Part shown: positions 3,008 through 43,725 of the stretch, piece after piece
Layout of the letters: the number at the start of each line of letters is the position of its first letter
How positions within the stretch are numbered: position 1 is the stretch's first letter
Assembly: GCA_017849585.1 (NCBI GenBank)
Contig: JAFIGT010000010.1
Coordinates: forward strand, 1-64,000
Source: Verrucomicrobium sp.
GTDB taxonomy: Bacteria > Verrucomicrobiota > Verrucomicrobiia > Methylacidiphilales > UBA1321
Direction: 5' to 3'
Length of the DNA stretch: 64,000 nucleotides
Notes under the pieces: generated by a model
What the model was told of the DNA's origin: nothing
Database searches by the model: none
The model's input: only the letters and a program-made list of their open reading frames with translations
Translations under genes and position numbers: made by a program

Positions 3008-3177
3008 AATTAACCCTGCTACTATTTGAAGAGAAAATAAGAGGAAGCAAGCAATTCCGATTTCTGAAAACTTCAGTTTCTTTGAGCCGAGTCGATAAAG
3101 TACTTGCAGACAGGAATGGGCGCTCGGGAGTGAGTGCGGTGAGTGAATCGAAAAGACGCTTATAACGAACAGCTTAT

Positions 3178-3804
3178 ATGATCCGGGAAGGTTACCAAAA
3201 ACGAAATGGCGTGGTGCTCTACTTCGGAGAGCCGCTCGCCCATGCGTGCCCGGAAACTTTCCAGTCGATTCCGTGCCACTTTAAAATCCGCGATTATTAT
3301 GGTCGCGATCACGCCCATGTCTTCTACCGCGACGCGATGGTGAAGGGGGCGGATCCGGCGACATTCGAGATTATCTCGCAATGGTACGCCCGCGATTGCC
3401 AATCCGGATTCTTTGCCGGTAAGGCCGTGCCGAACAGCCACGGGCCCTGCTTTCAATCGGTCACCGATTACTATGCGCGCGACCATAAGCGCGTCTTCTT
3501 TCATGGCCGTTGGATGAAGACGGCCGATCCGATGCATTTCCAGGCGATCGGGATGAACTACTTCACGGATCGCCGCCACGTTTACTACGATGGCAAGGCG
3601 ATCAAGGATGCGGATGCCGCATCGTTCATGCTGATCGGCGGGGATCATCTCGCCACCGATAAATTTGGTGGTTACTGGCGCGGACGCCGTTGCCCGGCAG
3701 GTACGTTGCTCGATCACGAGGAAGTACAATTTTTCTTCATCCGCAACAAACACCTGACGGACTATTGGTTCTTCAAGGGCCGGGTGGACCGGAACATATT
3801 TTAG
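3178..3804 (+). CDS. DKNYY-repeat family protein
   Basis: This 208-residue protein consists of about four tandem units of the DKNYY type, each with a (Y/F)-Y-x-(R/K)-D-(H/R)-x-x-V-(F/Y) core and a following G-A-D-P-x-(T/S)-F or equivalent: DHAHVFYRD, DHKRVFFHG, DRRHVYYDG, with the associated GADPATF, TADPMHF and DADAASF segments. DKNYY proteins are widespread in bacteria and have no established biochemical role. No signal peptide or membrane segment is visible, so it is probably cytoplasmic. It stands alone between divergently and convergently oriented neighbours and ends in a strong terminator. The ATG start has only a weak ribosome-binding site. Confidence 0.75.
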   Translation: MIREGYQKRNGVVLYFGEPLAHACPETFQSIPCHFKIRDYYGRDHAHVFYRDAMVKGADPATFEIISQWYARDCQSGFFAGKAVPNSHGPCFQSVTDYYARDHKRVFFHGRWMKTADPMHFQAIGMNYFTDRRHVYYDGKAIKDADAASFMLIGGDHLATDKFGGYWRGRRCPAGTLLDHEEVQFFFIRNKHLTDYWFFKGRVDRNIF

Positions 3805-37494: not shown

Positions 37495-37521
37495 TGTCCC
37501 GGATTGACTGGTCCATTCGTC
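37495..37521 (+). promoter_or_regulatory. Putative ECF-sigma promoter, site 1
   Basis: TGTC (37495-37498), 19 bases, CGTC (37518-37521), with CATTCGTCTTACT at the downstream end. It lies about 70 bases before the SRPBCC gene at 37592 and matches site 2 at 38142-38168 in both boxes and in spacing. The rest of the 37156-37591 gap shows nothing I can support. Confidence 0.6.
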
Positions 37522-37591
37522 TTACTATGGACCGGACGATCCGGTTCATTCCGTGCTCAAAAATACGAACCCCATTCCCAGGAAGAATCTC

Positions 37592-38131
37592 ATGCTCATT
37601 AAAATCCTCATCGGTCTTGTTGTCCTCCTCGTCATTCTTGTGATCGTGATTGTCTCGCGGCCGGATGAATTCCGCGTCAGTCGCACGGCGACAATTCCCG
37701 CCACCGCGCCGATTGTTTTCGAACAGGTGAATAATCTGGCGAATTGGAATTCGTGGTCGCCGTGGGCGAAGCTGGACCCGAACGCTAAGTACGCTTTCGA
37801 GGGGCCGATTTCCGGTGTGGGTGCCATTCTGCGTTGGGCGGGAAATAATCAGGTCGGCGAGGGGGCGATGACGATCACGGAAAGCCGGCCGAACGAACTC
37901 GTGGTGTTCAAACTCGAATTCCTCAAGCCATTCCAAGGGACCAACACGGTGGAATTCACTTTCAAGCCCGAGGGGGATCAAACCGTGGTCTCGTGGACCA
38001 TGTACGGGAAAAACAATTTCATGAGCAAGGCCATGGGTCTCGTCATGAACTGCGAGAAGATGTGCGGGGACCAGTTCGAGCAGGGTTTCGCCAATTTGAA
38101 AATCGTCTCCGCCGCGGCAGCTCGAAAATAA
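37592..38131 (+). CDS. Membrane-anchored SRPBCC family protein
   Basis: A 179-residue protein with one N-terminal hydrophobic helix (residues 1-21) and a START-like (SRPBCC) hydrophobic-ligand-binding domain: SRTATIPATAPIVFEQVNNL, NWNSWSPWAKLDP, FEGPISGVGAILRWAGN and a long C-terminal helix. These domains bind lipids or metabolites; the ligand is unknown. AGGAAG sets the start at 37592 rather than the in-frame ATG at 37553. It has its own ECF-type promoter and belongs to the regulon of the sigma factor encoded 2.3 kb downstream (inference). Confidence 0.78.
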   Translation: MLIKILIGLVVLLVILVIVIVSRPDEFRVSRTATIPATAPIVFEQVNNLANWNSWSPWAKLDPNAKYAFEGPISGVGAILRWAGNNQVGEGAMTITESRPNELVVFKLEFLKPFQGTNTVEFTFKPEGDQTVVSWTMYGKNNFMSKAMGLVMNCEKMCGDQFEQGFANLKIVSAAAARK

Positions 38132-38141
38132 CCGAAAGACT

Positions 38142-38168
38142 TGTCCTGAGAAATAGCGGTCATTCGTC
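38142..38168 (+). promoter_or_regulatory. Putative ECF-sigma promoter, site 2
   Basis: TGTC (38142-38145), 19 bases, CGTC (38165-38168), again within CATTCGTCTTACT. It lies 47 bases before the first DGPF gene and would drive the five-gene operon ending with the sigma factor. TGTC/CGTC agrees with the motif I recall for ECF42 sigma factors. Confidence 0.6.
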
Positions 38169-38214
38169 TTACTTCAGAACGACGACATCAACCTGAACCA
38201 AAAAAGGAAAAACC

Positions 38215-38619
38215 ATGACGACGCAAAACAACAAATCCGAATACATGCTCATCTTTCGTGGCAACGACTGGTGCAAGGAACTTTCCCCGGAGGAAATGCA
38301 GACCGTGGCGAATCAATGGATGGCCTGGTTCAATCGCCTCTCCGAGCAGGGCAAGGCGCTTGCGGGAAATCCCCTCGAACCCGAAGGCCGCGTCGTCACG
38401 GGCAAGCGGGACGGTGTGGTGGCGGATGGACCGTTCGCGGAATCAAAGGAAGCCATCGGCGGTTACTTCCTGCTGTCGGTGAAAAATTTCGACGAAGCCG
38501 TCGCCATCGCGAAGGAATGTCCGGGATTGAAATATGGCGCGAAGGTAGAAGTGCGGCAGGTGGCCGAAATGTGTCCCATGGCCAAGGCGGCGGAAGAGCA
38601 ACTTGCCGGGAAGCACTAA
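38215..38619 (+). CDS. YCII/DGPF domain protein, paralogue 1
   Basis: A 134-residue dimeric alpha/beta-barrel (YCII-related) protein with the namesake DGPF in VVADGPFAESKEAIGGYFLL, and EYMLIFRGNDW at the N-terminus. DGPF proteins are regularly encoded beside ECF42 sigma factors; no enzymatic role is established. It shares the DGPFAESKE-(A/L)-IGG core with the product of 39546-39959 in the same operon, so the pair arose by duplication. An AAAAAAGGAAAAACC leader supplies the ribosome-binding site. Confidence 0.85.
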   Translation: MTTQNNKSEYMLIFRGNDWCKELSPEEMQTVANQWMAWFNRLSEQGKALAGNPLEPEGRVVTGKRDGVVADGPFAESKEAIGGYFLLSVKNFDEAVAIAKECPGLKYGAKVEVRQVAEMCPMAKAAEEQLAGKH

Positions 38620-38629
38620 GGAGAATCTT

Positions 38630-38989
38630 ATGGCGCACTATGTCGATGGCTTTGTCGTGCCGGTACCAAAGCGCAACCTCGATGCGTATCGGCGCATGGC
38701 GAAAAAGGCGAGCCAGATCTGGCGCGAGTACGGGGCCTTGGACTACCGCGAATGTGTGGCGGATGACCTCGATGTGAAAATGGGATTGCCCTTCCCGCGT
38801 GGGATCAAGCTCAAGGCGGGCGAGACGGTGGTCTTTTCGTGGATCACCTACAAATCGCGCGCGCATCGGGATCGCGCCAACGCGAAGATCATGAAGGACC
38901 CGCGGATCGCCGCGATGTGTGGCAAGTCAATGCCCTTCGACTGCAAACGCATGCTCTATGGCGGGTTCAAGGTCATCGTCGAAATCTGA
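38630..38989 (+). CDS. DUF1428 family protein
   Basis: A 119-residue protein of the DUF1428 family, which also has a dimeric alpha/beta-barrel fold. Typical segments are YVDGFVVPVPKRNLDAYRRMA, WREYGALDYRECVADDL, VVFSWITYKSRAHRDRAN and the ending MLYGGFKVIVE. Function is unknown. GGAG eight bases upstream defines the ATG at 38630, 10 bases after the DGPF gene. It is part of the sigma-factor operon. Confidence 0.85.
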   Translation: MAHYVDGFVVPVPKRNLDAYRRMAKKASQIWREYGALDYRECVADDLDVKMGLPFPRGIKLKAGETVVFSWITYKSRAHRDRANAKIMKDPRIAAMCGKSMPFDCKRMLYGGFKVIVEI

Positions 38990-39018
38990 TCGAAACCTCC
39001 ATTGAGAAAGCAAAACTC

Positions 39019-39549
39019 ATGAATTCCGTATTGGAAAAATCAACGCAAAAACCCTTCATCATTTCGCGCGTGTTCGAGGCGCCGCCGGAGACGGTTTTCC
39101 GCATGTGGACGGAATCCAGGCATATGGAATGGTGGGGTCCGGCAGGTGTCACCATCTCCCATCACGAATTGGATCTGCGTCCCGGTGGCCGGTTTCACTA
39201 CTGCATGGAGACCGCCGATGGAAAGAAGATGTGGGGCAAGTGGACCATTCTGGAAGTGGAGAAACCGCGGCGGCTCGTCTTCATCAGTTCGTTTTCGGAT
39301 GAAGCGGGCGGAATAACTCGTCATCCGCTGAGTGATTCGTGGCCTCTGGAAATGCACTCCACAATCACCTTCACCCCGCAAGGAGACAAGACGCTGCTGA
39401 CCATCGAATGGATTCCCGTGAATGCCAGCGAAGAAGAGTGCCGGACCTTTGCCGAAGGATTCGATTCCATGCGGCAGGGCTGGACCGGTTGCTTGGACAA
39501 GCTTACCGAATATCTCGAACAATACAAAACCAGAAAGGAAATGAAATGA
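39019..39549 (+). CDS. AHSA1-like SRPBCC domain protein
   Basis: A 176-residue START-superfamily protein: FIISRVFEAPPETVFRMWTE, HMEWWGPAGVTISHHELDLRPGG and FHYCMETADGKKMWGKW fit the activator-of-Hsp90-homologue-1-like group common in ECF-linked operons. No membrane segment is present, unlike the related protein at 37592. It starts 29 bases after the DUF1428 gene and overlaps the next gene in an ATGA junction. It probably binds a small hydrophobic ligand; nothing more can be said. Confidence 0.83.
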   Translation: MNSVLEKSTQKPFIISRVFEAPPETVFRMWTESRHMEWWGPAGVTISHHELDLRPGGRFHYCMETADGKKMWGKWTILEVEKPRRLVFISSFSDEAGGITRHPLSDSWPLEMHSTITFTPQGDKTLLTIEWIPVNASEEECRTFAEGFDSMRQGWTGCLDKLTEYLEQYKTRKEMK

Positions 39550-39959
39550 GCACTCTCACACAAAATGAGTATCTGATGATCTTTCGCAGCGACGAATGGT
39601 ACAACCGTTTGTCCGCGTCGGAACTTCAAGCCGTCTGGAACCAATGCAATGCGTGGTACGAGCAGCTCGCCGCGCAGGAGAAGGTGGTCAGTGGTCGTCC
39701 GCTGGCGCGTTCGGGAGCGGTGGTTGCGAGCCAGAAAGAACCCGTCATGATGGACGGCCCGTTCGCGGAGTCGAAGGAACTCATAGGCGGCTTCATGATC
39801 CTCAAGGCCGGCAGCCTCGAAGAGGCGATCCAGATCGCGCGCACCAGTCCGAACCTGCGCTATGGCGTGACGATTGAAGTGCGCCCTCTCGCGGAGGAAT
39901 GTCCGATGGCGAACTTGGTCCGCGAGGCTGCGCGGGAAGAACAACTCGCCAGCGCGTGA
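39546..39959 (+). CDS. YCII/DGPF domain protein, paralogue 2
   Basis: A 137-residue DGPF protein: NEYLMIFRSDEWYNRLSASE, VMMDGPFAESKELIGGFMIL and an acidic C-terminal helix. It is the second DGPF copy of the operon, related to the product of 38215-38619 but clearly diverged. It is coupled by 4-base overlaps to both neighbours, including the sigma factor gene. Its close coupling suggests that its amount is matched to that of the sigma factor, and it may modulate it (inference; no anti-sigma factor is present). Confidence 0.85.
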   Translation: MSTLTQNEYLMIFRSDEWYNRLSASELQAVWNQCNAWYEQLAAQEKVVSGRPLARSGAVVASQKEPVMMDGPFAESKELIGGFMILKAGSLEEAIQIARTSPNLRYGVTIEVRPLAEECPMANLVREAAREEQLASA

Positions 39960-41278
39960 GTCTGCCGGAAGTCAAAACGCCCGTCGCACCGTCGGGAGAG
40001 GTCTCCCGGGCGGTCGAGCATCTTTTCCGTCACGAGTCGGGAAAGATGATCGCCATTCTCACGCGCATCTTCGGCATCGAACATCTCACGCTGGTCGAGG
40101 ATGTGGTGCAGGAGGCACTGATTCGCGCACTTAAGACGTGGCCGTTCTATGGCATTCCGGATAATCCCTCCGCGTGGATTTTGCGCGCGTCGCGCAATCT
40201 CGCGCTCGACGTGGTGCGCCGCGAGAAGAATTTCCGCGACAAGGAACCGGAAATCATCCGGTTGATGGAACAGCCCGGCACGACGCCCGATGCGGGCGTC
40301 TCGCTCGAGCAGGAGATCAGCGACGACCGTCTGCGCTTGATGTTCGTCTGCTGTCATCCCCTGATCCCGGCGGAGTCGCAAGTGGCGCTCGCGCTGAAAA
40401 CGCTTTGCGGTTTTAATGTGACGGAAATCAGCCGCGCGTTCCTCACCACCGAGGCCAGCATCGCGAAGCGTCTGACCCGCGCGAAGCAGAAAATCCGCGA
40501 CGCGGGGATTCCCTTCGAGATCCCAACTGGCGCGGAATTGTCGCGACGGCTGGATGTCGTGCTGCAGGCGCTCTACCTGCTTTTCAACGAGGGCTACAAA
40601 GCTTCGAGCGGCGAACGGTTGGTGCGGGAGGAAATTTGTTTCGAGGCGATCCGGTTGACTTTCTTACTGGCTGAGCACGCGGCGGGCAATCAGCCCAAGA
40701 CCCACGCGCTGCTCGCCTTGATGCTCCTGAACGCAGCGCGTTTTCCCAGCCGCGTCGATGACGACGGCAATCTGCTGCGCTTGCAGGAACAGGACCGCAC
40801 GCAATGGGATCGCGCTCGTATCGCGCGCGGCCTGTTTCATCTCGCCAAGTCGGCCGCCGGGGAGGAGATGACGACTTACCATCTCCAGTCCGGCATCGCC
40901 GCCTGTCATACCATGGCGACGGATTACGAATCGACCGACTGGCCGCGCATCCTGTCGCTGTATGACCGGCTGGTGGGATCGGACCCGTCGCCCGTCGTGG
41001 CGTTGAACCGCGCCATTGTGATTTCGCATGTGCAGGGACCGCAAGCCGGACTCGACGCGGTGGCGGCCATTCGCGATCTCGACAAGCTGGAGTCGTACTA
41101 CTTGCTGCACGCCGTGCTCGGGGAGCTCGAATCGCGCCTGCACCATTTCGGCGTGGCGGCGGATCATTACCGAAAATCACTTGAGCTGGCGGAAATCAAA
41201 TCCGAGCGCGCGTTTCTGGCGCGACGCTTGCAGGACTGCGCTTCGCGGTCGGCGGTGGAGGAAAAGTTGCAGGGATGA
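39956..41278 (+). CDS. ECF42-type RNA polymerase sigma factor
   Basis: A 440-residue ECF sigma factor with a large C-terminal extension. Region 2 spans about residues 15-90 (ILTRIFGIEHLTLVEDVVQEALIRALKTW, WILRASRNLALDVVRRE) and region 4 about 115-180 (QVALALKTLCGFNVTEISRAF, AKRLTRAKQKIR). The remaining ~250 residues are helical and TPR-like (DUF6596), the hallmark of the ECF42 group. These factors lack a classical anti-sigma partner; the extension is needed for activity in studied members. Translation begins at a GTG overlapping the DGPF stop (GTGA). The two TGTC-N19-CGTC sites upstream suggest autoregulation. Confidence 0.9.
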   Translation: MSLPEVKTPVAPSGEVSRAVEHLFRHESGKMIAILTRIFGIEHLTLVEDVVQEALIRALKTWPFYGIPDNPSAWILRASRNLALDVVRREKNFRDKEPEIIRLMEQPGTTPDAGVSLEQEISDDRLRLMFVCCHPLIPAESQVALALKTLCGFNVTEISRAFLTTEASIAKRLTRAKQKIRDAGIPFEIPTGAELSRRLDVVLQALYLLFNEGYKASSGERLVREEICFEAIRLTFLLAEHAAGNQPKTHALLALMLLNAARFPSRVDDDGNLLRLQEQDRTQWDRARIARGLFHLAKSAAGEEMTTYHLQSGIAACHTMATDYESTDWPRILSLYDRLVGSDPSPVVALNRAIVISHVQGPQAGLDAVAAIRDLDKLESYYLLHAVLGELESRLHHFGVAADHYRKSLELAEIKSERAFLARRLQDCASRSAVEEKLQG

Positions 41279-41439: not shown

Positions 41440-42621
41440 TCAGACGGCGAGCGACTCAAGCGGTATGATCGACAGGGCGCAGTCTTCCTTGCCCTGCGAG
41501 TAGACAACGTACAGATGGCCATTGTGCTCCACAGCCTTGGGGTAGGACCACTCGGTGAATGTGCCCACGTAGCTTTCCGCGCCGTAGCCTTCGAAGAGCC
41601 TTCTTGCGGGCCAATCCTGGTGGCGCACTTTGAAGATGCGGCGGAAGAGCCCGCCTTCCGGGCTCGTGACGGCCAGGCTCAACAGGCTTCGTCCCTCTTC
41701 GGTCGCGAGGCTGTTGGTCAGTAGATAATTCTGCCCGGTGCTCAACCGGCCGGAGAAGGGCATGCTAGCCGTCAATGGGAAATTGCACAAGCCCAGTGGT
41801 GTCCATGTGCGTCCGTTGTCGCGGCTCTCGGACATGGGAGCCGTGAACATTTCTTCGTCCGGAGGGTACACGAGGTGCGGGGCCTCCCGGTTGAACTTCG
41901 CATTCGGGCGGCAAATCGCGAGAATGCGGTCTGGCTGACTCACGAGAGCCGTCTCTGGGTACAGGATCTTGAGTGCTTCCGGGCGAGGTATCGTCACCAG
42001 ATCCCACCGGGTGAGATCGGAGCCCTGACTGATGATCACAGCCGATTCGTACCAACCATATTCTCCGCCGATGATCCAGTTTCCGTCATTCATGAGCTGC
42101 GGCGTGCAGAAAGGGAGGAATCCGGGGATGTCGCAATTGGGCTGGTATTGCCATGCCCCGGTGCGGTCATCATGGAGGAACACTTGAGTGGTCGGTTTAC
42201 CGTCATGCCAGGCGACGAAGAAGCCATACAAGGTGTCGCTTTGGGAAAAGATGAGCGGGTGGTTGAACGACGAAGCTCCGTTCTGTGGGGCTTGCACCCA
42301 AACCGACGGTTCGCTCCAGCGCAATCCGTCCGCGGAGGTTTTTCCGCGGATGATTTCATTGCGGTTGTTGTCCTCAAGATGCGGGTGATTGGCCCAACCG
42401 ACATGGAACTGGCCTCGATGCCACGCGATGGTCGACTCGTGCAAATAGTGGTAAACACCGTGTTGCCCACGCTCCACGGAGACCTGGGTTATAATGCCGG
42501 GTTCCTCCATGTGCTTCGGTGACGGAAAGGGCACGGTCGGATCCCAGACGGGAATGAGGGAGGTGTCGGCGGCAAGCTCGGTTGAAGAGGGTATTGCAGA
42601 GATGACTTTTCTTTCTGTCAT
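41440..42621 (-). CDS. Sialidase-like (BNR-repeat) protein, apparently not secreted
   Basis: A 393-residue six-bladed-propeller sialidase-family protein. Asp-box-like elements appear (SADGLRWSEP, SRDNGRTWTPL), as do HESTIAWHRGQFHVGWANH and YPETALVSQPDRILAICR, with an arginine-rich active-site candidate. It could hydrolyse sialic acid or another sugar from glycans, although many BNR proteins have other substrates. There is no signal peptide, so it is predicted cytoplasmic, which is odd for an exo-sialidase. The start at 42621 is set by AAAGG; the gene follows the aldolase gene on the same strand. Confidence 0.65.
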   Translation of the reverse strand: MTERKVISAIPSSTELAADTSLIPVWDPTVPFPSPKHMEEPGIITQVSVERGQHGVYHYLHESTIAWHRGQFHVGWANHPHLEDNNRNEIIRGKTSADGLRWSEPSVWVQAPQNGASSFNHPLIFSQSDTLYGFFVAWHDGKPTTQVFLHDDRTGAWQYQPNCDIPGFLPFCTPQLMNDGNWIIGGEYGWYESAVIISQGSDLTRWDLVTIPRPEALKILYPETALVSQPDRILAICRPNAKFNREAPHLVYPPDEEMFTAPMSESRDNGRTWTPLGLCNFPLTASMPFSGRLSTGQNYLLTNSLATEEGRSLLSLAVTSPEGGLFRRIFKVRHQDWPARRLFEGYGAESYVGTFTEWSYPKAVEHNGHLYVVYSQGKEDCALSIIPLESLAV

Positions 42622-42707
42622 ATTAAGGCCTTTTCGCGGCTCGCCGAGGAGTGAATTCACCGGGGCGTATGGCGGGATTCGTTGCTTTATATAGCTATAG
42701 AATTTGA

Positions 42708-42767
42708 AATTTCCCGCCCTTGCGGACGGGAAATTATCGAATGCCAGGGCGGATGCGTCCGCCCTGG
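42708..42767. terminator. Two consecutive hairpins between aldolase and sialidase-like genes
   Basis: AATTTCCCG/CGGGAAATT (42708-42735) and CCAGGGCGGA-TGCG-TCCGCCCTGG (42744-42767). They lie between two genes of the same orientation. Without a T tract they are more likely mRNA-processing or stability elements, or partial terminators that lower expression of the second gene. Confidence 0.5.
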
Positions 42768-42801
42768 TGAGAGTGTTCACACTCCAGAGTTGTCAGGCGA
42801 T

Positions 42802-43725
42802 TTAGATGTGTCCGTATTCCTTCAGGGACTTCTTGAGTTTGGCCATCACATCATCGGGCAGGCGCATCACCGGCTTGCGCGCGACACCGGCGTTGATGCC
42901 GCGCAGTTTGAGACCTTCCTTGATTACCGAGAGCCACGGGCAGGGAAGCCCCTTGTCAGTGCTTTCGGTAAACAGCGGGAGGTATGGGCGGATCTTCTCG
43001 AAATGATACTTCTGGGCCTCTTCGATCTTGCGGCTCTTGGCCAGATCGAAAACGGTTTTGTTTTCACGCGGGAACAGATTGCCCGTGCCGCAGACCCAAC
43101 CGTCTGCCCACATGGACACGCTCTCGACCGGACAGATGTCGTATCCGTAGAAGATGCCGAATCCGTCATTGGTTAACGCGCGCAGATTCTGTTGACGGTA
43201 AACGTCGGCCTGGCGTTCCTTTACGGCGTCGATCAGGCCGTCGTTATAGAGCTTCGCCATGAACTTGTCCGTCATCAGGCAGGTGGAATAGTAGGGGTTA
43301 TGATAGACCATGATCGGGATGGAGATGGCTTTGCGGACGGCTTTGAAGTGCTCATAAAGCTCGTCTTCGTTGGGGGCCATGTACCATGGAGTGATGATCA
43401 TGACGCCATCGGCTCCAGCCGCCTCGGCGCTCTTCGACATGTCGATCGTATCGGTGGTGCGGTAAGCGCCGGTAGAGCAGAATACCTTCACCCGACCCGC
43501 CGCGTATTCGCATACCGAGGCATTCACCCTTTTCTGCTCATCGGTGGACATGGCGACGAATTCACCCGTACTGCCGGACGGAATAATGCCGTCCACGCCA
43601 TTCTTGATCAAAAATTCGGTGACTTCCTTTAATCCCGAAAAATCAATGGATTCGTCCGACTCCTTGAATGGCGTGATCATCGGGATGAAAATACCTTCCG
43701 GCTTTTTCTTTGCTGTGCTTGGCAT
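42802..43725 (-). CDS. Dihydrodipicolinate synthase / N-acetylneuraminate lyase family aldolase
   Basis: A 307-residue TIM-barrel class I aldolase. It has the carboxylate-binding GSTGEFVAMSTDEQKRV, the catalytic tyrosine in MVYHNPYYST and the Schiff-base lysine in LIDAVKERQAD. The enzyme releases or condenses pyruvate with a sugar-derived aldehyde. The lysine motif differs from the GxK(D/N)xSG of true DapA, and its place between an AraC regulator and a sialidase-like gene suggests catabolism of a sugar acid such as a sialic acid rather than lysine biosynthesis (inference). Expression is probably controlled by the operator at 43958-43989. Confidence 0.82.
   Translation of the reverse strand: MPSTAKKKPEGIFIPMITPFKESDESIDFSGLKEVTEFLIKNGVDGIIPSGSTGEFVAMSTDEQKRVNASVCEYAAGRVKVFCSTGAYRTTDTIDMSKSAEAAGADGVMIITPWYMAPNEDELYEHFKAVRKAISIPIMVYHNPYYSTCLMTDKFMAKLYNDGLIDAVKERQADVYRQQNLRALTNDGFGIFYGYDICPVESVSMWADGWVCGTGNLFPRENKTVFDLAKSRKIEEAQKYHFEKIRPYLPLFTESTDKGLPCPWLSVIKEGLKLRGINAGVARKPVMRLPDDVMAKLKKSLKEYGHI

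What the first reader, a model, noticed from the sequence alone, without database searches (positions are those of the whole stretch)
37495..41278. Two matching ECF-type promoters define an autoregulated DGPF/SRPBCC sigma regulon
TGTC-N19-CGTC, with an identical CATTCGTCTTACT block at the -10 end, occurs at 37495-37521 and 38142-38168, ahead of the membrane-anchored SRPBCC gene and of the operon that ends with the ECF42-type sigma factor. The spacing is identical. TGTC/CG(A/T)C is what I recall for ECF42 promoters in actinobacteria, so the same recognition may hold here. The operon has two DGPF paralogues and two SRPBCC proteins but no anti-sigma factor.
Basis: partly seen in the sequence, partly recalled or inferred. 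Interest (0 to 1): 0.55.

Follow-up and report, generated by a model that had tools for sequence, protein, structure and literature searches.

The report
Self-controlled sigma factor's promoter set
Two matching DNA switches in this bacterium sit in front of small-protein genes and of the gene for the regulator that most likely reads them, and comparison across bacteria suggests that one amino acid of such regulators goes with one letter of the switch.

Summary
The two sites are real. TGTC-N19-CGTC, both ending CATTCGTCTTACT, lies at 37495-37521 and 38142-38168. The bare pattern is at chance level; comparison makes it convincing. Upstream of ECF42 sigma genes (sets of 65 and 80 loci) TGTC...CG(T/A)C peaks sharply at spacer 19, as in published Sinorhizobium RpoE10 promoters. 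The sigma factor is ECF42: sigma2, sigma4, DUF6596, TPR-fold C-terminus. The operon is DGPF/YCII, DUF1428, AHSA1-type SRPBCC, DGPF/YCII, sigma; a separate membrane-anchored SRPBCC gene precedes it. A third genomic site fronts an AHSA1-DoxX pair. In 16 relatives with an ECF42 sigma, 23 of 50 extended-motif sites front glyoxalase, SRPBCC, YCII, DUF899 and similar genes; in six genomes without, 0 of 13. New here: the fifth -35 base is nearly always C when sigma residue 171 is Lys and G when it is Gln, also in a test fixed beforehand (8 of 8 C; 15 of 16 G, the other T). Few independent contrasts exist, so cause is unproven. Autoregulation is likely but untested. Verdict: a known kind of system with a -35 variant and a testable one-residue specificity switch.

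The parts
37495..37521 (+). ECF42-type promoter 1: -35 TGTCC (37495-37499), spacer 19, -10 CGTC (37518-37521); predicted start of transcription G at 37530
   Evidence: +9 start by analogy with the mapped SMc01149 start and the frequent G at that place in relatives
37592..38131 (+). membrane-anchored SRPBCC (Polyketide_cyc2) protein, 179 aa
   Evidence: hydrophobic N-terminus read from the translation
38142..38168 (+). ECF42-type promoter 2: -35 TGTCC (38142-38146), spacer 19, -10 CGTC (38165-38168); predicted start G at 38177
38215..38619 (+). DGPF/YCII protein 1, 134 aa
38630..38989 (+). DUF1428 protein, 119 aa
39019..39549 (+). SRPBCC (AHSA1-type) protein, 176 aa
39546..39959 (+). DGPF/YCII protein 2, 137 aa
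39956..41278 (+). ECF42 sigma factor, likely GTG start overlapping the previous stop (GTGA); sigma2, sigma4, DUF6596, TPR-fold C-terminus
40466..40468 (+). codon of Lys171 (GTG Met = 1) in the sigma4 recognition helix, which goes with C at the fifth -35 base

Best explanation
The sites are two promoters of an ECF42 sigma regulon. RNA polymerase carrying the sigma factor of 39956-41278 reads TGTCC with sigma4 and TTCGTC with sigma2, 19 bases lying between TGTC and CGTC, and starts about 9 bases after CGTC. It makes the membrane-anchored SRPBCC mRNA from promoter 1 and the DGPF-DUF1428-AHSA1-DGPF-sigma mRNA from promoter 2, so the sigma factor probably amplifies its own supply. No anti-sigma gene is in the operon; activity is probably set through the TPR-fold C-terminal extension, perhaps by a partner such as a DGPF protein. 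Shown: sequence, domains, TPR fold (model), conserved spacing, motif-associated gene families. Inferred: sigma dependence, start sites, autoregulation, partner. Further inference: Lys171 sets the fifth -35 base.
For: Spacer-19 peak: 29 matches of TGTC...CG(T/A)C in 65 loci (22 CGTC + 7 CGAC) and 31 in 80 loci (22 + 9), against at most 8 at any other spacer tested (12-26 and 14-24). Published RpoE10 (ECF42) table of S. meliloti lists three sequences, all TGTC-N19-CGTC (PMC6180224, Table 1); two of the three genes rose on overexpression. Third site in the genome 33 bases before AHSA1-DoxX; the block is kept in the sister genome, where the AHSA1 gene is missing and DoxX follows. Extended motif fronts regulon-type genes at 23 of 50 sites of 16 ECF42-bearing genomes and 0 of 13 in six without (Fisher p 0.002; 16 of 42 away from the sigma loci, p 0.011). 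No sigma70-like promoter at either site. Lys171/Gln171 against C/G.
Against: No expression data. The bare motif is at chance level. 81 of 144 distinct sigmas have no exact N19 site within 2000 bases upstream. The third site alone could be chance (P about 0.13), and in the sister genome its -35 is TGTCT. S. meliloti RpoE10 did not raise its own upstream gene. Sites in the six ECF42-free genomes also exceed the backward control (13 against 4), so counts alone prove little. The ECF41 promoter in the same table (before SMb20029) also reads TGTC-N19-CGTC, so the core motif is not unique to ECF42.
Confidence: 0.85

Rival explanations
1. The promoters are read by another ECF sigma factor of the cell, for example an ECF41 one; the ECF42 sigma is only a target.
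For: The published ECF41 promoter before SMb20029 has the same TGTC-N19-CGTC core. The genome has a second, weak sigma match (G000:C24). Whether G000 has an ECF41 gene was not searched.
Against: The motif tracks ECF42 loci across phyla at exact spacing. The fifth base tracks a residue of the ECF42 sigma next to it. G000 has one DUF6596 sigma.
Confidence: 0.09
2. Only promoter 1 is used in practice; the operon is made by read-through from it, and promoter 2 is weak or used by another factor.
For: The gap between the SRPBCC stop and the DGPF start is 83 bases, and the scan lists no terminator-like site on the + strand there.
Against: In many relatives with a site it lies a few hundred bases before sigma, where the DGPF-sigma operon begins; promoter 2 matches the motif fully.
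Confidence: 0.1
3. Chance resemblance, or a repeat copied by local duplication.
For: TGTC-N19-CGTC is near chance level in window and genome.
Against: The spacers of the two sites differ and only the promoter elements agree; relatives with other spacers keep the same elements.
Confidence: 0.02
4. The Lys171/Gln171 link to C/G is only shared descent, and another residue reads the base.
For: The tree has only 3 K/Q changes and 2 usable independent contrasts, one resting on a small clade of L306 and L487; other residues also separate the clades.
Against: Both contrasts agree. L306 and L487 combine K171 with V174 and have C, though the L487 site is poorly placed; L480 combines Q171 with T174 and has G. 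The L306 genome also has TGTCC before a RibD_C frame, but it holds a second ECF42 gene too.
Confidence: 0.35

Closest known systems
Sinorhizobium meliloti RpoE10 (ECF42) regulon, PMC6180224 (passages, Table 1 and section 12 seen)
   Same: TGTC-N19-CGTC promoters, YCII gene upstream of sigma, a target with a hydrophobic-ligand domain and glyoxalase-like targets, no anti-sigma gene identified, mapped start 9 bases after CGTC at SMc01149
   Different: -35 is TGTCGG there, TGTCCC/TGTCCT here; RpoE10 did not raise its own upstream gene; its residue 171 was not checked
Streptomyces venezuelae ECF42 sigmas (Liu et al. 2018, Wu et al. 2019; papers not held, known from reviews and recall)
   Same: TPR C-terminal extension, neighbouring DGPF genes
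   Different: recalled -35 TGTCGA and -10 CGA/TC; the actinobacterial sigmas in my sample carry Gln171
Pseudomonas putida ECF-10 (ECF42; seen only as cited in PMC8999054 and PMC6180224)
   Same: ECF42 group, similar gene context
   Different: promoter not examined here; linked to stress and biofilm traits

Membership tests
ECF42 sigma factors | sigma2 and sigma4 of ECF type | tested here: met
   Sigma70_r2 2.7e-09; Sigma70_r4_2 4.6e-05, just under its cut-off; TIGR02937 2.6e-13, over its cut-off
ECF42 sigma factors | long C-terminal extension with TPR domain | tested here: met
   DUF6596 2.2e-36; AlphaFold mean pLDDT 90.9; residues about 302-438 match TPR domains, for example CHIP, Z 13, rmsd 2.2-2.4 over about 127 residues. 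No TPR Pfam hit in the sequence itself, though two homologues have one. Z near 13 is also reached by helical repeats in general, so the fold match is good, not absolute
ECF42 sigma factors | DGPF/YCII gene next to the sigma gene | tested here: met
   YCII genes at 38215-38619 and 39546-39959
ECF42 sigma factors | no anti-sigma gene beside the sigma gene | tested here: met
   none among the six proteins by Pfam and NCBIfam
ECF42 sigma factors | target promoters TGTC...CG(T/A)C | tested here: met
   sequence only, no transcription test; ECF41 shares this core
TGTCG-type (Gln171) ECF42 promoters | G at the fifth base of the -35 element | tested here: not met
   both window sites and the third site have C, with Lys171 in the sigma factor; so this is the TGTCC type
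Autoregulated sigma operon | sigma factor raises transcription of its own operon | not testable with these tools
   promoter 2 is in place; needs expression data

The most novel reading that the evidence does not exclude
ECF42 sigma factors carry a one-residue -35 specificity switch: Lys171 in the sigma4 recognition helix selects TGTCC and Gln171 selects TGTCG. It splits Verrucomicrobiota and Bacteroidota regulons from those of the other phyla sampled, and it arose again in a small lineage seen in Gemmatimonadota and Chloroflexota.
Probability: 0.55. Interest if true: 0.55.

Novelty: new variant of a known kind. Interest (0 to 1): 0.42.

Why it matters
ECF42 is a widespread sigma group whose signal and regulon are poorly known. 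The motif found here gives a working definition of the regulon in relatives of this bacterium (glyoxalase, SRPBCC, DGPF, DUF899, SnoaL, RibD and DoxX genes). It also gives a concrete one-residue, one-base prediction that a reporter assay can test and that could be used to make orthogonal sigma-promoter pairs.

Tried and rejected
Bare motif as evidence: rejected, near chance. Inverted repeat GGTCCAT...ATGGACC around the -10 of promoter 1, seen by eye: not kept in the sister genome (its sequence), dropped. Other near-motif sites of the own genome: TGTCC-N16-TTCGTC also occurs at C12:28471, inside a long frame. Of the four one-mismatch sites, the three read by that list plus C9:36585 all lie under or at frames; G000:C3:4965 fronts a NodT-like lipoprotein frame, but the like site in G002 is altered and the start codon would lie only 4 bases after the predicted start; left open. 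The 2-mismatch sites were not gone through one by one. G000:C2:189360 and its like in G002 lie inside a long frame, rejected. T174 as the reader of the base: disfavoured, since L480 (Q171, T174) has TGTCG and L306 and L487 (K171, V174) have C. The L487 site lies several hundred bases before the likely YCII start and is weak. Residue 61 against the -10 T/A: 12 of 15 CGAC loci have Gln61, but only 2 to 4 independent contrasts exist; not claimed. Foldseek's own best PDB hits were TPR proteins with low overall TM-scores. Papers not held: Liu 2018, Casas-Pastor 2021, Lane and Darst 2006. Whether the TGTCC form or the Lys171 link is in print was looked for only, in an open-licence library that lacks the main ECF42 papers; the ECF reclassification may list subgroup motifs.
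Full report
Observation. TGTCCCGGATTGACTGGTCCATTCGTC (37495-37521) and TGTCCTGAGAAATAGCGGTCATTCGTC (38142-38168) are present as described, with the shared 13-mer. The bare pattern is near chance level in window and genome. The spacers differ between the two sites, so this is not a copied repeat. Predicted starts of transcription are 37530 and 38177, giving leaders of 62 and 38 bases before the ATG codons at 37592 and 38215. No sigma70-like promoter overlaps either site.

Genes. Pfam gives Polyketide_cyc2 (SRPBCC, with an N-terminal hydrophobic segment seen in the sequence), YCII, DUF1428, AHSA1, YCII and a sigma factor with DUF6596. No anti-sigma family appears. The sigma gene probably starts at GTG 39956, overlapping the stop of the previous gene. 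The AlphaFold model has mean pLDDT 90.9. Its C-terminal part (about 302-438) aligns with TPR domains at Z about 13 and rmsd 2.2-2.9 over roughly 120-130 residues, which fits the ECF42 description in PMC8999054 (section 15 read).

Published yardstick. Table 1 of PMC6180224 (passages with the table notes, and section 12, seen) lists RpoE10 sequences for SMb20475, SMc01149 and SMc01151. All three read TGTC-N19-CGTC, and the last ends CCATTCGTC as here. The SMc01149 start, found by both methods of the paper, is the ninth base after CGTC. SMb20475 and SMc01149 rose on overexpression; SMc01151, the YCII gene before rpoE10, did not, and its motif overlaps its mapped start, so autoregulation is not universal. 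The ECF41 promoter before SMb20029 in the same table has the same core (counted by eye), so the core alone does not name the sigma group.

Comparative footprint. In 1500 bases upstream of 65 ECF42 genes (the window's own site lies further up and is not counted) the pair TGTC...CGTC / CGAC occurs 22 + 7 times at spacer 19, and at most 8 times in all at any other spacer from 12 to 26; control words give 0-3. In 80 further loci from genomes of many phyla (the best 80 of 589) the numbers are 22 + 9, other spacers from 14 to 24 at most 8 in all, control words 0-5. The two sets overlap by one locus or more; 144 distinct sigmas remain, and 63 of them have an exact N19 site within 2000 bases. Around 34 sites of Lys171 loci the profile is TGTCCT(G/T)...CCGTTCGTC(A/G)T...TGAA, with G at the ninth base after CGTC in 23 of 34, the place of the mapped start (L061, L067 and L312 were left out of the two profiles, and TT before CGTC was favoured where a locus had several sites).

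Regulon. In the own genome the extended motif matches exactly three times; without the last two bases TGTCC-N16-TTCGTC matches four times, one of them inside a long frame. The third site, G000:C25:69979-70008, lies 33 bases before an AHSA1 gene followed by DoxX_2. In sister genome G002 the same block, with TGTCT for TGTCC, stands before DoxX, and the AHSA1 gene is absent; G002 is a near relative, so its agreement at the window sites adds little. In 16 genomes with an ECF42 sigma, TGTCC-N16-TTCGTC occurs 50 times (backward control 15); in 6 without (no DUF6596 match; G013), 13 times (control 4). Taking by rule the longest frame that starts 8-250 bases downstream, 49 of 50 and 9 of 13 sites have one. 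By Pfam 23 of the 49 belong to: glyoxalase/3-dmu 7, YCII 5, SRPBCC 4, DUF899 2, and DUF1428, SnoaL_3, RibD_C, DUF1579 and ECF42 sigma 1 each. The other 26 do not; many look like chance sites. None of the 9 control frames does. Fisher p is 0.002 on sites and 0.008 on frames. Eight of the 50 sites lie in the sigma neighbourhoods themselves; without them 16 of 42 remain (p 0.011). I grouped the families after seeing them, and the control set is small. G127 and G010, whose fetched ECF42 sigmas are Gln171 type, have no such site.

Specificity variant. Among 63 loci with a chosen N19 site the fifth base is C 35, G 25, T 2, A 1; Lys171 stands in 34 of the 35 C loci and Gln171 in 24 of the 25 G loci. 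The exceptions, L067 and L312, have sites far from the sigma gene, and L067 has a better placed TGTCC...TTCGTT site. Counting every N19 site in 2000 bases: Lys, C 36, G 2, T 1; Gln, G 24, C 1, T 1, A 1; for sites 350-1000 bases upstream: Lys, C 26 of 26; Gln, G 22 of 23 and T 1; control spacers show no link. In the 30 loci returned from the phylum of the Gemmatimonadota genome G483: Gln, G 16 of 16, 13 of 29 Gln loci without a TGTC-N19 site; the single Lys locus (L394, the same as L306) has GGTCC. I then wrote the prediction down and tested 57 new loci, the best of two searches: Lys, C 8 of 8; Gln, G 15 of 16 and T 1 in the zone; 34 of the 57 had no site, and three of the eight Lys sites are nearly identical. 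On a tree of 230 sigmas built without the recognition-helix and sigma2 trait columns, K/Q changes at least 3 times. Rows with one base, C or G, 300-1000 bases upstream (86 of 230; rows with other or mixed bases dropped, window and L306 added by hand) give C 35 of 35 for Lys and G 51 of 51 for Gln. Only two independent contrasts exist, both concordant, so a sign test cannot be significant. L306 (K171, V174) has its GGTCC...CATTCGTC site before a DoxX_2 gene, and its genome has one TGTC-N17-TTCGTC(A/G)T site, with TGTCC, before a frame-broken RibD_C gene; but that genome also holds a second ECF42 gene. By alignment with a solved ECF sigma, Lys171 stands in the sigma4 helix-turn-helix; that it lies in the recognition helix and that the equivalent residue touches DNA in E. 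coli sigmaE is recalled, not checked.

Verdict. Wider sampling shows that the -35 is the TGTCC branch, that the regulon probably extends beyond the locus, and that a single residue is a good candidate for the branch point. Sigma dependence, autoregulation and the signal remain untested.

Noticed in passing
L085 about 3100-3272 (G000:C25:70099-70271, minus strand): A tRNA-Cys gene beside the third promoter is split near its D-arm by an insert of about 170 bases with inverted-repeat ends; the sister genome has the uninterrupted gene. A 78% copy lies elsewhere on C25, and another tRNA-Cys is called on C35.
   Followed up: partly
L079, L080, L090, L247, L293, L321 upstream of the sigma gene: Six of 63 chosen ECF42 sites read TGTCG-N18-CGACA, which is two-fold symmetric at the right spacing and could fire in both directions.
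   Followed up: no
L254 (record titled Deltaproteobacteria): Its ECF42 sigma nests among Verrucomicrobiota sigmas (SH-aLRT 98): gene transfer or a misbinned contig.
   Followed up: no
window 41440-43725, minus strand: A BNR_2 (sialidase-like) protein gene beside a dihydrodipicolinate synthase family gene, a family that includes sialic-acid lyases.
   Followed up: partly
L172 12-1460; L137 from 1501: One motif site in G123 fronts a MatE efflux pump gene; a near-motif site in G000:C3 fronts a NodT-like lipoprotein frame, named from its translation only.
   Followed up: partly
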